From the NCBI GenBank assembly GCA_043822065.1, contig JBDRCC010000008.1:1-25130 (forward strand): a stretch of 25,130 nucleotides of DNA, in the 5' to 3' direction. The stretch's first letter is position 1, and each line of letters begins with the position of its first letter. Source of the DNA: JBDRCC01 sp043822065 [NCBI: archaeon]. Its GTDB lineage: Archaea; Undinarchaeota; CAZHTU01. This document shows, piece after piece, positions 568-21,928 of the stretch. The notes under the pieces were generated by a model. The model made no database searches. It was given only the letters and a program-made list of their open reading frames with translations, and was not told the origin of the DNA. The position numbers and the translations under genes were made by a program.

Positions 568-1329
568 TTAATGTTTTGACCTTAGTTTACTCCATTCACT
601 ATAGATATGGTCATATTTCATTCTCATGTAAGTCCCATATAATTCTTTCGAAATTCCCAAATCGACTTTTTCAACTTCTTGCATCTTTGACTTCGCATCA
701 ACCAAACATTCTTTTATATAATCTAAATGTTGTTTCTTTGAATAGAACTTAGTCAAAAGCAATTGCATAGTCTGGTATGCTTCATATGCAAATGGAGGGA
801 TATCAAAATCTTCCGAAAGAGGGAGGTTTTGCTCTTCCGTTCTCCTTTGAGATTGTTTAATAAGCTTTTGGGGATTATAATGGAGGTAACCACTACGGAG
901 ATCAGATAACGACTGGAGTTTATCTTTCATAGGAATAATCCCTAATTTTTTAATGACTTTATAATCTTGTATTAATTGACCTAATGTAGTGTAAGAAGTT
1001 ATTCGAGTTCCGTAGTCTATAGGTACCCCTCTCAAATACTCGTATTTAATAACTAATTCGCAACAAGTCGCAGAGCAAGCTATGCTCGCAAGGTAGTATC
1101 CATTCTTATAACAAAGATACGCTTGCTCGGCGAATGGTTCTATTAGCTCTTGCAGACCATACCATTCTTTTTCATTAAGATACCAATCAGTTATGAGTAC
1201 GTGGGGTTCTGGGAATTGTATAAACTGAATATTTGGCTGCTTTATGGGTCTTGGATAAAAATGGCCATCGGCGTCCTCAATAAAAACTGAGGTTCTGCCC
1301 CGGTAGGCATCATTTATCCTGTCTGTCAT
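568..1329 (-). CDS. HEPN-domain protein (DUF4145-like), possible RNase or defence-associated
   Basis: A 253-residue soluble protein. Residues about 66-155 look like a HEPN helical bundle: a helix with alternating small residues (ASIACSATCCELVIKYEYL, 81-99), a middle segment (TLGQLIQDYKVIKKLG), then LSDLRSGYLHYNP with R145 and H150, which fits the R-x4-H motif of HEPN nucleases. HEPN domains usually act as RNA-cutting toxins or effectors, or as inactive RNA binders; both motif residues are present here, so activity is possible. The N-terminal 60 residues and the charged C-terminus are unassigned. A minus-strand TATA-like TATAGAAT at 1362-1369 lies just behind the rRNA terminator, giving a leader of about 10 nt. 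No antitoxin-type (MNT nucleotidyltransferase) partner is adjacent. The gene is AT-rich compared with the core genes, suggesting horizontal acquisition. The HEPN call rests on pattern only. Confidence 0.75.
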   Translation of the reverse strand: MTDRINDAYRGRTSVFIEDADGHFYPRPIKQPNIQFIQFPEPHVLITDWYLNEKEWYGLQELIEPFAEQAYLCYKNGYYLASIACSATCCELVIKYEYLRGVPIDYGTRITSYTTLGQLIQDYKVIKKLGIIPMKDKLQSLSDLRSGYLHYNPQKLIKQSQRRTEEQNLPLSEDFDIPPFAYEAYQTMQLLLTKFYSKKQHLDYIKECLVDAKSKMQEVEKVDLGISKELYGTYMRMKYDHIYSEWSKLRSKH

Positions 1330-1442: not shown

Positions 1443-4392
<2,950 letters not shown>

Positions 4393-4484
4393 TTTTCAGC
4401 CTAACGCTAGAACAAAGTCCTAACGTTTTGCCCTCAAAACGATTGCGCGTCTTGAGGAATATTGTGGCGCAGGATGGCCTATGA
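4393..4484 (-). other. 5' arm of the 23S rRNA processing stem
   Basis: Bases 4445-4484 pair with 1381-1420, and 4393-4401 pair with 1434-1442. The bases between (4402-4444) form the asymmetric internal loop on the 5' side. The stem starts about 130 nt beyond the stop codon of the zinc-ribbon gene, so that gene lies outside the 23S precursor stem. Confidence 0.75.
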
Positions 4485-4523
4485 TGGATCATTAACCCCT
4501 CATCGCGCCGCCGACTGGAGGCG

Positions 4524-4603
4524 CTGGGTTTTACCCAGGCAGACGAATCTGCCCTTCACACCAAGCGGGGTTTCCGCCCGTGCTGTTTCATCGAAACGAT
4601 GAA
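4524..4603 (-). other. Chain of hairpins in the 23S leader
   Basis: Between the zinc-ribbon gene and the 23S processing stem, the transcript can form at least three perfect hairpins: 4587-4603 (7-bp arms, 3-nt loop), 4538-4553 (6-bp arms closing a UUCG tetraloop in the minus-strand RNA) and 4524-4538 (6-bp arms, 3-nt loop). The segment 4554-4586 is GC-rich and probably also folded. Function unknown. It may keep the leader apart from the rRNA fold or block ribosomes leaving the upstream coding region. Confidence 0.55.
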
Positions 4604-4615
4604 TGTGATGCGCAG

Positions 4616-4879
4616 TTACAGGAACTGCTCGTTTTCCTTTGACGTCATTTTGCCGACTGCCTCTGAGACTGAAAGGGTGTTGTCCTCTACGGTCTGCCCG
4701 CAGTCGTTGCACACTTTCTTGTGCGTGCTTTCGACGTCCGATGTGCAGTTTTTGCAGACCCGCTTCCCGAAGAGGAATATTGCCCTCTTCGTCTGGCTTG
4801 CGGGAATTGTGCCGCACTTTGCGCAGTAAAACTGCTCCTCCACTGCGTTTTTGTCACAGTACGGGCAGTTTTCCGCCAT
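4616..4879 (-). CDS. Double zinc-ribbon protein encoded inside the rRNA operon spacer
   Basis: An 87-residue protein with two four-cysteine zinc sites: C5-x2-C8-x10-C19-x2-C22 and C42-x2-C45-x11-C57-x2-C60. The regular CxxC spacing in both halves makes chance very unlikely. The C-terminal 27 residues are polar and end NEQFL. The ATG at 4879 is preceded by an AAAGGA Shine-Dalgarno-like element about 6 nt upstream. The gene lies on the same strand as the rRNAs, 40 nt after tRNA-Ala and about 130 nt before the 23S processing stem, so it should be part of the primary rRNA transcript unless a hidden promoter exists. Zinc ribbons of this size occur in ribosomal proteins and small nucleic-acid-binding proteins; I cannot name this family. 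Product function is unknown; location in the rRNA transcript is the key feature. Confidence 0.8.
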   Translation of the reverse strand: MAENCPYCDKNAVEEQFYCAKCGTIPASQTKRAIFLFGKRVCKNCTSDVESTHKKVCNDCGQTVEDNTLSVSEAVGKMTSKENEQFL

Positions 4880-4903
4880 TTTTTTCCTTTCAGTTTTTTT
4901 GTA

Positions 4904-4917
4904 TCAGCTTAAGCTGA
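4904..4917. promoter_or_regulatory. Perfect 14-bp palindrome next to tRNA-Ala
   Basis: TCAGCTTAAGCTGA is a perfect palindrome starting 2 nt after the tRNA-Ala 3' end and 24 nt before the zinc-ribbon start codon. In RNA it could form a hairpin or dimer; as DNA it could be a binding site. It lies where a cut separating tRNA-Ala from the downstream message would be needed. Confidence 0.55.
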
Positions 4918-4919
4918 CA

Positions 4920-5020
4920 TGGACCCGCCGAGATTTGAACTCGGGGCCTCTACCAGTCAGGAGCCCGATTTTACCCGGGCTGTGCCAGGGTAGCGCTCTA
5001 CCAGACTGAGCTACGGGCCC
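4920..5020 (-). tRNA. tRNA-Ala(GGC) with a 27-nt intron
   Basis: The acceptor stem is GGGCCCG/CGGGTCC with A73, and position 3-70 is the G-U pair that defines alanine tRNA. The D arm is GCTC/GAGC, and the T arm is CCGAG/CTCGG with loop TTCAAAT. The anticodon stem is CTACC/GGTAG. The 5' exon reads C32 T33 G34 G35 C36 A37, giving anticodon GGC. An intron at 4956-4982 follows position 37, forms a 6-bp hairpin, and is placed so that the two 3-nt bulges and a central helix (one U-U mismatch) give a relaxed bulge-helix-bulge. The spliced loop would be CTGGCAT. CCA is not encoded. Its place between 16S and 23S is typical of euryarchaeal-type operons. Confidence 0.9.
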
Positions 5021-5107: not shown

Positions 5108-6580
<1,473 letters not shown>

Positions 6581-6911
6581 TGGTCGCTATCTTGCTAAAC
6601 TTTACTTAAATTGAATTGAGCGAGTTGCTCGAAGTTTCGTCTTCGGACACCTACCTCACCAGCTGGCAGCTGCCAACCGGCTCATCTTTTGTACACAGAG
6701 CGAAAGGTGCCTCTCATGCTAGCGTCAAATGTATCGACGCAGTCAAAGCCATCGCCGGCTCTGTGCGTGAACTTATAACGAGTGCGCATCCCCTATAGCA
6801 TCGAAGGGAATACTTAACGACCTCCGGAGTTTAAGCGGAAGTCTCCTCTGTGTTCACCAACCCGTTATTAGTCAGAAAAGGTTTATAAAGGTTCTGTATA
6901 TATCCTGCGTC
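6581..6911 (-). other. rRNA 5' external leader and divergent promoter region
   Basis: This 331-nt stretch has no credible gene. Bases 6614-6633 are the 5' arm of the 16S processing stem. Possible minus-strand TATA boxes for the operon are TTATAAG at 6772-6778 (start about 6750) and the symmetric TTTATAAA at 6882-6889 (start about 6860). Neither can be chosen from sequence alone. Around 6665-6680 there is a short GC-rich palindromic stretch (GGCAGCTGCC). Confidence 0.6.
6882..6889. promoter_or_regulatory. Symmetric TATA box, possibly bidirectional
   Basis: TTTATAAA is its own reverse complement. On the plus strand it is preceded by a purine-rich GAAAAGG that fits a TFB-recognition element, and its centre is 26 nt from the ATG at 6912, giving a leaderless mRNA. 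On the minus strand it could also serve the rRNA operon. Confidence 0.6.
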
Positions 6912-10428: not shown

Positions 10429-11484
10429 TCACAGCTCCTGTCTTGATCTATACGCACAATGTCCATCAGATGTGCCTATATTGTGCATCGGGAACTTCTC
10501 TAAAATCTTATCTCGCAGGTTTTTAATACTATCCGCTCTAACGTTGCCTATTACTTGTTCATTGCCTGGGCAGGGGCTCACTCGCCCATCACCGTATATT
10601 TGCATAAACTCCACACAAGGCATAGTTATAAAATTATTATATGTGGGGTGGTCATAGCCATACTCCTTTGCGTCAATTCTCCTCACTAACTCCCGCAAGG
10701 CTTTTTTGTTTTCTTCCGAAACTAATAGACCCCTATCAAAGTTATCGCGCCCGCTTCTCCCCGACGGCAAAAAGAATGCGAAAATAATCCATATGTTGTT
10801 ATTTCGACAGAAACGAAGGGTTCGTTCAACTTCCCCCTTATTTTTATTATTGACAATCATATCAAAGCCAAGGCGCGTGGTGCCATCCCGTTCAACCTTA
10901 TTAAAACCCTCCGAAATTAGGAGCTCCATGGCTTCCTTTCGCAGATTAAAATACGTCCGCGAGCCATCGTTCACGACGTCGTTCTGGTAGTCAGCATTCC
11001 AAAGACTATCACACTTCAGTACAATGCTAGCTCCCGTGCCATTAATTCGCCTCACAAAATTCACATCTCGCAGCATCGTTGCCCCATCAGTATACACTAC
11101 TGGTTGTATGCCCTTGGAAACACTATATTCAATTATCTCAAAAAAATCTTTATCTAGTGTTGGTTCCCCCTCTCCCAAGAAATCAATACTCTTTGTTTTT
11201 AAGAGTGAAAGCTGGTCTATTACCGATTTTATCTCTTCCAAACTAAGGGTTTTCTTGTTCTTATCCGTAAAACAATGCGCACAATCGTGCGGGCATTTTT
11301 CAGTCATAGCTCTAAAGTCTACTACCGGGAGAGAATCTTCGTCTCGGAATTCTTTCTCCGCTATGTTCCAGCCCTTAATCACTGCACCTATCCCAACTGG
11401 CACGCGCCCCAGGCCGAAATATCGTTCTCGCGATAATTGCATACATACTCTACAAACTAATTCTTTATTATACCTTTCGCCCAC
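10429..11484 (-). CDS. Radical SAM protein with a SPASM-like C-terminal region
   Basis: A 351-residue protein with the radical SAM cluster motif C64-x3-C68-x2-C71 (CPHDCAHC), followed by the SAM-binding glycine-rich GEGEPT at about 104-109 and the typical beta/alpha repeats. The C-terminus has C290-x14-C305 (PCVEF...SPCPGN) and C343, resembling a reduced SPASM auxiliary-cluster domain. The N-terminus has a further CxxC (C11, C14). Such enzymes often modify peptides or other macromolecules; the substrate here is unknown. The start is uncertain: GTG 11484 keeps the N-terminal CxxC, while ATG 11442 is an alternative. The gene is AT-rich with codon use unlike the neighbouring antiporter and membrane genes, which suggests acquisition. 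No precursor-peptide gene is seen next to it. Confidence 0.85.
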   Translation of the reverse strand: MGERYNKELVCRVCMQLSRERYFGLGRVPVGIGAVIKGWNIAEKEFRDEDSLPVVDFRAMTEKCPHDCAHCFTDKNKKTLSLEEIKSVIDQLSLLKTKSIDFLGEGEPTLDKDFFEIIEYSVSKGIQPVVYTDGATMLRDVNFVRRINGTGASIVLKCDSLWNADYQNDVVNDGSRTYFNLRKEAMELLISEGFNKVERDGTTRLGFDMIVNNKNKGEVERTLRFCRNNNIWIIFAFFLPSGRSGRDNFDRGLLVSEENKKALRELVRRIDAKEYGYDHPTYNNFITMPCVEFMQIYGDGRVSPCPGNEQVIGNVRADSIKNLRDKILEKFPMHNIGTSDGHCAYRSRQEL

Positions 11485-15470: not shown

Positions 15471-15480
15471 TAAAATAAGG

Positions 15481-15572
15481 GGCCGAAGCCGAGATTTGAA
15501 CTCGGGGCGGGGGATTTCTGCAACTATTGGTTGCCACAGTCCCCCATGTTACCAGGCTACACCACTTCGGCC
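15481..15572 (-). tRNA. tRNA-His(GTG) with an 18-nt intron
   Basis: The 5' end carries an encoded extra G (G-1) opposite C73, the histidine identity pair, followed by acceptor GCCGAAG/CTTCGGC. The anticodon stem is GGGGA/TCCCC, and the 5' exon reads C32 T33 G34 T35 G36 G37, anticodon GTG. The intron at 15516-15533 follows position 37. Bases 32-35 pair with GCAG near its 3' end to give the 4-bp central helix, flanked by two 3-nt bulges, and a short AAC/GTT hairpin lies inside: a good bulge-helix-bulge. The T arm is CCGAG/CTCGG. CCA is not encoded. A 20-bp exact copy of the tRNA 5' end and flank lies upstream. Confidence 0.93.
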
Positions 15573-21415: not shown

Positions 21416-21928
21416 TTATACTGTGCTCCTTTGCAGGAACCGCATTACGGTCGAGTGCTCCTGCCCGTTTCCAAGCCGTGTGACTGCTTCCCTTGCGGTG
21501 GCGACGTCCTCAATCTTCCCTATTATGCCGACCGTTTTTCCGTATATCACTATGTTTGTGCTTGTCATCTCCTCTATGCGCTCCTTCGCCTTTCCGTCCC
21601 GCCCGATTATCCGCCCCCGTATCCTGTCGAGGTGCTGGGGCTGGACGAACTCCGTGAGCTCTACAAGCTCAAGGACGCAGTCTGGCTCCTCCGATATCCT
21701 CATCGCGGTCTCCGGGTTGAAGCCGCGCGCAATCGCCTTTACGATGTCCCGCGCCTTCCACTCGCCTAGCGGGTCCCTTGCGTTTTCCTTTCGCCGGATG
21801 GAGACTATCCCCGTCTCACTGTTTATAGTTAAGATTGTTTCGGTGTTTGCCTCTATTTGCCCCTTCGTGGCGCCGTCGGTCCCTATCAGGACGGCAATCC
21901 GGTCCTTTGGAACCCTGACGTCTTCCAT
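21416..21928 (-). CDS. Two-KH-domain RNA-binding protein (archaeal Dim2/Pno1-like)
   Basis: A 170-residue protein with two KH modules: the first has IGTDGATKGQIE (15-26, GxxG loop TDGA region), the second has RIIGRDGKAKERIEE (106-120). Between them lies ARDIVKAIARGFNPETAMRI, typical of the archaeal homologue of eukaryotic Dim2/Pno1 (Krr1-like). That family binds the 3' end of small-subunit rRNA during maturation and works with the Nob1 endonuclease; transfer to this protein is inference from strong similarity. It is the first gene of the operon with top6B and top6A. A minus-strand TATA-like TTATTTAAAG (22007-22016) would give a 58-nt leader containing a perfect palindrome. Confidence 0.9.
   Translation of the reverse strand: MEDVRVPKDRIAVLIGTDGATKGQIEANTETILTINSETGIVSIRRKENARDPLGEWKARDIVKAIARGFNPETAMRISEEPDCVLELVELTEFVQPQHLDRIRGRIIGRDGKAKERIEEMTSTNIVIYGKTVGIIGKIEDVATAREAVTRLGNGQEHSTVMRFLQRSTV

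What the first reader, a model, noticed from the sequence alone, without database searches (positions are those of the whole stretch)
4616..4879. Zinc-ribbon protein gene inside the rRNA operon spacer
rRNA spacers normally hold only tRNAs. Here an intact 87-codon gene with eight cysteines in two clean zinc sites lies between tRNA-Ala and 23S, on the same strand and outside both processing stems. It has a Shine-Dalgarno-like element and is followed by a chain of hairpins. Its expression should follow rRNA synthesis, so the product could be a ribosome-associated or rRNA-processing factor, or a feedback regulator. That role is inference.
Basis: partly seen in the sequence, partly recalled or inferred. 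Interest (0 to 1): 0.78.

Follow-up and report, generated by a model that had tools for sequence, protein, structure and literature searches.

The report
Protein gene inside archaeal rRNA operon
In this archaeon a small, real-looking, probably zinc-binding protein gene sits between the two big ribosomal RNA genes, where usually only a tRNA gene lies, so its production may be tied to the making of ribosomes; what the protein does is not known.

Summary
On the minus strand the order is 16S, tRNA-Ala (with intron), an 87-residue ORF (4879-4616), 23S. The ORF is very likely a real host gene: its codon score beats 17 of the 18 window genes compared, and none of 15,000 synonymous recodings nor of 30 open frames inside the rRNA genes reach it. 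It has four CxxC pairs and weak double-zinc-ribbon matches just under Pfam's cut-offs. It lies outside the core helices of both rRNA processing stems; the 23S stem holds a canonical bulge-helix-bulge, the 16S stem only an irregular one. No strong TATA box or T-run terminator was seen around it. Co-transcription with rRNA and release by tRNA and rRNA processing is the best reading; none of it is measured. Function is open. No orthologue was found, and no genome is held for the window, so conservation, the decisive test, is undone. A ribosome-linked role is a guess. Boldest reading not excluded: excision of pre-16S and pre-23S and ligation of their flanks builds the mRNA, with the rRNAs as the 'introns'.

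The parts
6882..6889 (-). TATA-like box TTTATAAA upstream of 16S; the same palindrome lies 30 bases before the divergent gene 6912+
   Evidence: 8 of 8 match to the (recalled) consensus used; promoter function inferred
6624..6651 (-). 5' arm of the 16S processing stem, bulge-helix-bulge-like
   Evidence: the strict motif scan found none here
5108..6579 (-). 16S rRNA
   Evidence: Rfam RF01959, 1503.8 bits
5038..5064 (-). 3' arm of the 16S processing stem
4920..5020 (-). tRNA-Ala(GGC) with an intron in the anticodon loop (intron borders not settled)
   Evidence: Rfam tRNA 59.3 bits; ARAGORN with introns allowed
4904..4917 (-). 14-base perfect palindrome just after the tRNA
4885..4890 (-). Shine-Dalgarno-like AAAGGA in an A-rich stretch; the 30 bases 4905-4876 are among the least paired of the spacer
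4616..4879 (-). 87-residue protein gene with four CxxC pairs
4508..4607 (-). chain of predicted hairpins after the stop codon
   Evidence: minimum-free-energy fold of the spacer
4456..4484 (-). 5' arm of the 23S processing stem with canonical 3-4-3 bulge-helix-bulge; predicted cut 4463/4462
   Evidence: place of the cut within the bulge is from recall
1445..4396 (-). 23S rRNA
   Evidence: Rfam RF02540, 2635.2 bits
1381..1409 (-). 3' arm of the 23S processing stem; predicted cut 1398/1397
   Evidence: place of the cut within the bulge is from recall

Best explanation
A genuine host gene for a small protein with two likely zinc sites lies in the 16S-23S spacer and is transcribed as part of the rRNA precursor. 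tRNase Z cutting at the tRNA-Ala 3' end and splicing-endonuclease cutting in the 23S bulge-helix-bulge would free an mRNA of about 460 nt (4919 to 4463), with an unpaired A-rich ribosome-binding site in front and a hairpin chain behind. Its supply would follow rRNA synthesis. The protein most likely binds nucleic acid or protein through its zinc ribbons; a role in ribosome making or use is the first guess. Shown: the open frame, its coding bias, its position, the stems. Inferred: co-transcription, release, translation. Guessed: function. My rough odds: real gene 0.95, rRNA co-transcription 0.8, ribosome-linked role 0.3. The confidence given is for gene plus co-transcription and release; the first rival shares those steps and differs on function only.
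For: Codon score 0.301 bits per codon; leave-one-out scores of the 18 window genes I chose for training run from -0.341 to 0.336, and 17 of 18 are lower. 0 of 5,000 synonymous recodings under each of three base compositions reach it, and 0 of 30 open frames inside the rRNA genes do (maximum 0.104). The four other listed frames overlapping it score -0.416, -0.229, -0.162 and 0.044. Same strand and order. Best TATA-like match before the ORF 6 of 8 and between ORF and 23S 6 of 8. No T-run of 5 or more from 4919 to 4397. Canonical 3-4-3 bulge-helix-bulge at 23S with 27 bp of flanking helix, against a maximum of 14 in 200 shuffles. Start region (4905-4876, chosen by eye) mean unpaired probability 0.668, reached by 2 of 556 windows of the spacer RNA, itself included; 0.709 and 5 of 428 after a cut at the tRNA end. 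Pfam DZR_2 4.8e-6 and DZR 5.9e-5.
Against: Both Pfam scores fall just under the curated cut-offs (26.7 against 27; 23.6 against 27.3). No relative in viral contigs, plasmids or phages; in genomes only the zinc domain of a methionyl-tRNA synthetase. The Shine-Dalgarno match is four bases only. A TATA-like 6 of 8 match lies 28 bases before the ATG. The strict bulge-helix-bulge scan found none in the 16S stem. A terminator-like hairpin with a short T-rich tail lies at 5101-5079, before the tRNA. No expression data and no conservation test.
Confidence: 0.6

Rival explanations
1. A zinc-ribbon gene unrelated to ribosomes that landed in the spacer by rearrangement; it rides on the rRNA transcript without functional coupling.
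For: Zinc ribbons are generic (recalled); no ribosomal protein among the 4 PDB hits at E up to 10. Of 16 deleted genes for small one-domain zinc-finger proteins of Haloferax volcanii, 12 gave a phenotype under at least one of four conditions, such as biofilm formation or swarming (PMC6562870, abstract).
Against: Very high rRNA-level transcription would be costly for an unrelated protein (inference); the codon bias is that of a settled host gene. Neither point is strong.
Confidence: 0.35
2. A separate transcription unit with its own weak promoter between the tRNA and the ORF, giving a leaderless or short-leader mRNA.
For: CTGATACA, 6 of 8, at -28 from the ATG, close to the spacing of TATA-like boxes before other window genes; two genes that look promoter-led by eye (9436+, 11520+) also reach only 6 of 8.
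Against: 6 of 8 is frequent by chance (1,495 of about 50,260 positions); 9 of 23 other coding frames have 7 or 8 of 8. The ORF has an AGGA element, as three frames that follow another gene closely (13909-, 18511-, 19645-) appear to have by eye. No strong TATA-like box was seen between ORF and 23S, so 23S transcription probably passes through the ORF.
Confidence: 0.15
3. Not a gene: a chance open frame or an assembly chimaera.
For: No orthologue found.
Against: Codon statistics and the CxxC pattern. Each processing stem pairs across its own rRNA gene, so a chimaera would need two joins within about 550 bases (inference).
Confidence: 0.04

Closest known systems
Euryarchaeal-type rRNA operon, 16S - tRNA-Ala - 23S - 5S (PMC8339473, passages read)
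   Same: Same order 16S, tRNA-Ala, 23S; processing stems, that of 23S with a canonical bulge-helix-bulge.
   Different: A protein gene sits after the tRNA; no 5S was found in the window (permissive search of 1-1445).
Double zinc ribbon domains, Pfam DZR_2 (PF18912) and DZR (PF12773)
   Same: Four CxxC pairs in about 60 residues; weak matches.
   Different: Scores below the curated cut-offs; a Cys-free, mildly acidic tail of 27 residues.
Zinc domain of methionyl-tRNA synthetase (Treponema, L001)
   Same: EQFYCAKCG stretch and CxxC rhythm; 35% identity over residues 15-69.
   Different: L001 encodes methionine--tRNA ligase (NCBIfam metG 6.7e-138, over its cut-off); the window protein has no synthetase body and other knuckle spacing. 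The scan needs an exact peptide match, so the hit is selected. Not an orthologue.
Joined 5'ETS-ITS and ITS-3'ETS by-products of rRNA splicing in Pyrococcus furiosus (PMC7758197, passages read)
   Same: Both stems here could in principle yield such joined flanks.
   Different: In the passages read those by-products are not described as coding for a protein; here the spacer carries a gene. The 16S motif here is irregular.

Membership tests
Pfam DZR_2 / DZR double zinc ribbon | Score at or above the curated cut-off | tested here: not met
   26.7 against 27 bits; 23.6 against 27.3 bits
Pfam DZR_2 / DZR double zinc ribbon | Four CxxC pairs forming two zinc sites | tested here: inconclusive
   Four CxxC present; zinc binding and fold not shown (pLDDT 49.6)
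Archaeal ribosomal protein | Sequence similarity to a known ribosomal protein | tested here: not met
   phmmer against PDB sequences: 4 hits at E up to 10, none ribosomal; Pfam Ribosomal_L37e only E 0.26, 11.8 bits against 27.6, in the 25 of 31 families shown. Single-sequence searches can miss distant relatives
Archaeal ribosomal protein | Presence in the ribosome | not testable with these tools
   needs proteomics or structure
rRNA operon member gene | Same strand, between 16S and 23S | tested here: met
rRNA operon member gene | Transcribed from the rRNA promoter | not testable with these tools
   no RNA data; no strong TATA-like box or T-run of 5 found around the ORF
rRNA operon member gene | Position conserved in relatives | not tested
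   no genome held for the window; the one genome scan gave no orthologue
Bulge-helix-bulge rRNA processing | Canonical 3-4-3 motif in the 23S stem | tested here: met
   outer helix 16 bp, inner 11 bp; 0 of 200 shuffles as good
Bulge-helix-bulge rRNA processing | Canonical 3-4-3 motif in the 16S stem | tested here: not met
   strict scan with five bulge-size settings found none; a near-motif with one extra unpaired A can be read from the arms

The most novel reading that the evidence does not exclude
The rRNA splicing pathway makes the mRNA. The splicing endonuclease cuts pre-16S and pre-23S out at their bulge-helix-bulge motifs and a ligase joins the flanks, so that 5'ETS, spacer and 3'ETS form one RNA in which the two rRNAs were the 'introns' and the spacer is a coding 'exon' (predicted junctions 6636/5047 and 4463/1397). 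The zinc-ribbon protein is then made best when rRNA is correctly excised, and acts as a gauge of, or factor in, ribosome maturation. The irregular 16S motif counts against the first junction; the second rests on a canonical motif.
Probability: 0.12. Interest if true: 0.85.

Novelty: new variant of a known kind. Interest (0 to 1): 0.55.

Why it matters
In the review passages I read (PMC8339473) the archaeal 16S-23S spacer is described with an Ala-tRNA gene and no protein gene. A protein gene placed so that rRNA and tRNA processing would release its mRNA would couple the level of one protein directly to rRNA output, and would make the fate of the spliced spacer by-product directly testable. If the gene is conserved in place it would point to an unknown ribosome-linked factor.

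Tried and rejected
Homologue searches: genomes (51 stretches matched a pattern, 1 passed, in Treponema; read and shown by NCBIfam to be methionine--tRNA ligase, so rejected as orthologue), viral contigs (6 stretches, none passed), plasmids and phages by tblastn at E up to 1 (none), PDB sequences (4 weak hits, a leucyl-tRNA synthetase first), PHROGs (18 families at E up to 1, all of unknown function, best 3.4e-4), PADLOC (mREase_II, E 0.0041, judged a zinc-motif match). NCBIfam: one sub-threshold rubrerythrin-like domain, E 0.0096, 15.6 bits against 32.

Structure: single-sequence AlphaFold2 gave pLDDT 49.6; no fold search was run on it, and the second structure job was not used.

A scan of viral contigs for the 16S 3' end, meant to find other archaeal spacers, gave two loci in which Rfam found no rRNA; the frames of one of the two were listed.

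Literature: seven searches for a protein gene in an archaeal 16S-23S spacer (listed of found: 20 of 39, 8 of 8, 15 of 78, 15 of 22, 7 of 7, 15 of 32, 3 of 3) showed no title or start of abstract that names one. The library lacks most subscription journals. Five papers were opened: passages of PMC12918454, PMC8339473, PMC7758197 and PMC7714728, and the outline with abstract of PMC6562870. So this is weak evidence of absence. Searches were the searches that led to the rRNA-processing and small-zinc-protein papers.

Considered and rejected: that the hairpin at 5101-5079 ends transcription after 16S. It is terminator-like (three such sites on both strands of the spacer against a shuffle mean of 1.2) but lies between 16S and the 3' arm of its stem, upstream of the tRNA and 23S.

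Lineage: the window is archaeal (archaeal rRNA models, topoisomerase VI, arCOG04150); no finer placement was made.

Full report
What is there. On the minus strand the window carries archaeal 16S (6579-5108), a tRNA (5020-4920) and archaeal 23S (4396-1445). With introns allowed ARAGORN calls the tRNA Ala(GGC); its exact intron borders were not settled. Between tRNA and 23S lies an open frame of 87 residues, 4879-4616. The spacer is 711 bases (5107-4397). No 5S was found in the window, nor in a permissive search of bases 1-1445.

Is it a gene? Codon usage trained on 18 other window genes, chosen by me, gives the frame 0.301 bits per codon and third-position GC 0.727. In leave-one-out tests the 18 genes score -0.341 to 0.336, and 17 of 18 lie below the frame. 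0 of 5,000 synonymous recodings under each of three base compositions, and 0 of 30 open frames of 60 codons or more inside the rRNA genes (maximum 0.104), reach it. The four other listed frames overlapping it score -0.416, -0.229, -0.162 and 0.044. It is the only one of 169 stop-to-stop frames of 60 aa or more with at least three CxxC; in 400 shuffled windows 2 of 59,865 such frames had four or more. I take it as a real gene of the host.

What protein? Four CxxC pairs at 5/8, 19/22, 42/45 and 57/60 suggest two zinc sites. Pfam DZR_2 (E 4.8e-6, 26.7 bits, cut-off 27) and DZR (E 5.9e-5, 23.6 bits, cut-off 27.3) match weakly, so it looks like a double zinc ribbon but misses the formal family cut-offs. 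PDB sequences give four hits at E up to 10, none ribosomal. The single-sequence structure model is too poor to use. The one relative that passed in the public genomes is the zinc domain of a Treponema methionyl-tRNA synthetase (named by NCBIfam); I do not regard it as an orthologue. Viral contigs, plasmids and phages gave none. No whole genome is held for the window, so neither lineage nor conservation could be tested.

How is it expressed? The 16S flanks pair (core arms 6651-6624 and 5064-5038) and the 23S flanks pair (4484-4456 and 1409-1381). A strict scan finds a canonical 3-4-3 bulge-helix-bulge in the 23S stem with 16 bp outside and 11 bp inside, 27 in sum; the best of 200 shuffles reached 14. 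The strict scan finds none in the 16S stem, where a near-motif with one extra unpaired A can be read from the arms. The ORF is outside these core helices. The duplex program, which maximises pairing, also strings loose pairs beyond them: to 4603 with the ORF left out, and through the ORF to 4894 with it included. I do not count those as stem.

By an 8-base TATA consensus (recalled, not fitted) the region upstream of 16S has 8 of 8 at 6889. Of 23 other coding frames 9 have 7 or 8 of 8 in the 45 to 18 bases before the start; this ORF has 6 of 8 at -28, a frequent level (1,495 of about 50,260 positions). There is no T-run of five or more between 4919 and 4397. AAAGGA lies five bases before the ATG. 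The 30 bases around the start (chosen by eye) have mean unpaired probability 0.668 in the predicted spacer RNA, reached by 2 of 556 windows, and 0.709 after a cut at the tRNA end, reached by 5 of 428, itself included. This fits an operon-internal gene whose mRNA is freed by tRNA and rRNA processing. None of this is measured, and a weak own promoter is not excluded.

Relation to known biology. A review states that in most cases the euryarchaeal spacer holds an Ala-tRNA gene and that in most archaea the stems carry bulge-helix-bulge motifs cut by the splicing endonuclease (PMC8339473, passages). In Pyrococcus furiosus the joined flank RNAs were detected as few reads: 42 for 5'ETS-ITS1 and 11 for ITS2-3'ETS (PMC7758197, passages). 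Another paper mentions a bulge-helix-bulge in one archaeal mRNA, citing earlier work (PMC7714728, passages), so splicing of a protein-coding RNA by this pathway has a precedent. A survey finds that archaeal rRNAs with circular forms have canonical motifs and non-circular 16S rRNAs lack them (PMC12918454, passages); by that rule the irregular 16S motif leaves 16S circularisation here open. So the boldest reading, a protein mRNA made by splicing out two rRNAs, is mechanistically possible but needs junction reads.

Verdict. Coupling to rRNA synthesis is likely from anatomy. A ribosome-linked function is a guess. The finding is unusual and testable, but rests on one locus without orthologues.

Noticed in passing
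568-1329, minus strand: A 253-residue frame shortly after the 23S stem has codon usage foreign to the window (GC3 0.33, score -0.37) and no Pfam match at E 0.001 or PADLOC match at E 0.01; a likely recent arrival.
   Followed up: partly
6882-6889: A palindromic TTTATAAA lies upstream of 16S and 30 bases before the divergent gene 6912+, so one box may serve both directions.
   Followed up: no
10429-11484, minus strand: Radical SAM protein with sub-threshold matches to NirJ2 (NCBIfam 1.5e-15) and to viperins (PADLOC pVip 1.1e-12), and the lowest codon score of the 18 genes compared.
   Followed up: no
15479-15571, minus strand: tRNA called Thr(TGT) without introns and Tyr(GTA) with an 18-base intron allowed; the latter may be right.
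   Followed up: no
window genes: Several genes have a strong TATA-like box about 28-42 bases before the start codon and, by eye, mostly no Shine-Dalgarno element, which suggests leaderless or short-leader mRNAs in this archaeon.
   Followed up: no
4894-4905 minus strand and upstream of 21928 minus strand: The 12-mer GATACAAAAAAA occurs just before both this ORF and the KH-domain protein gene 21416-21928; possibly chance in A-rich leaders.
   Followed up: no
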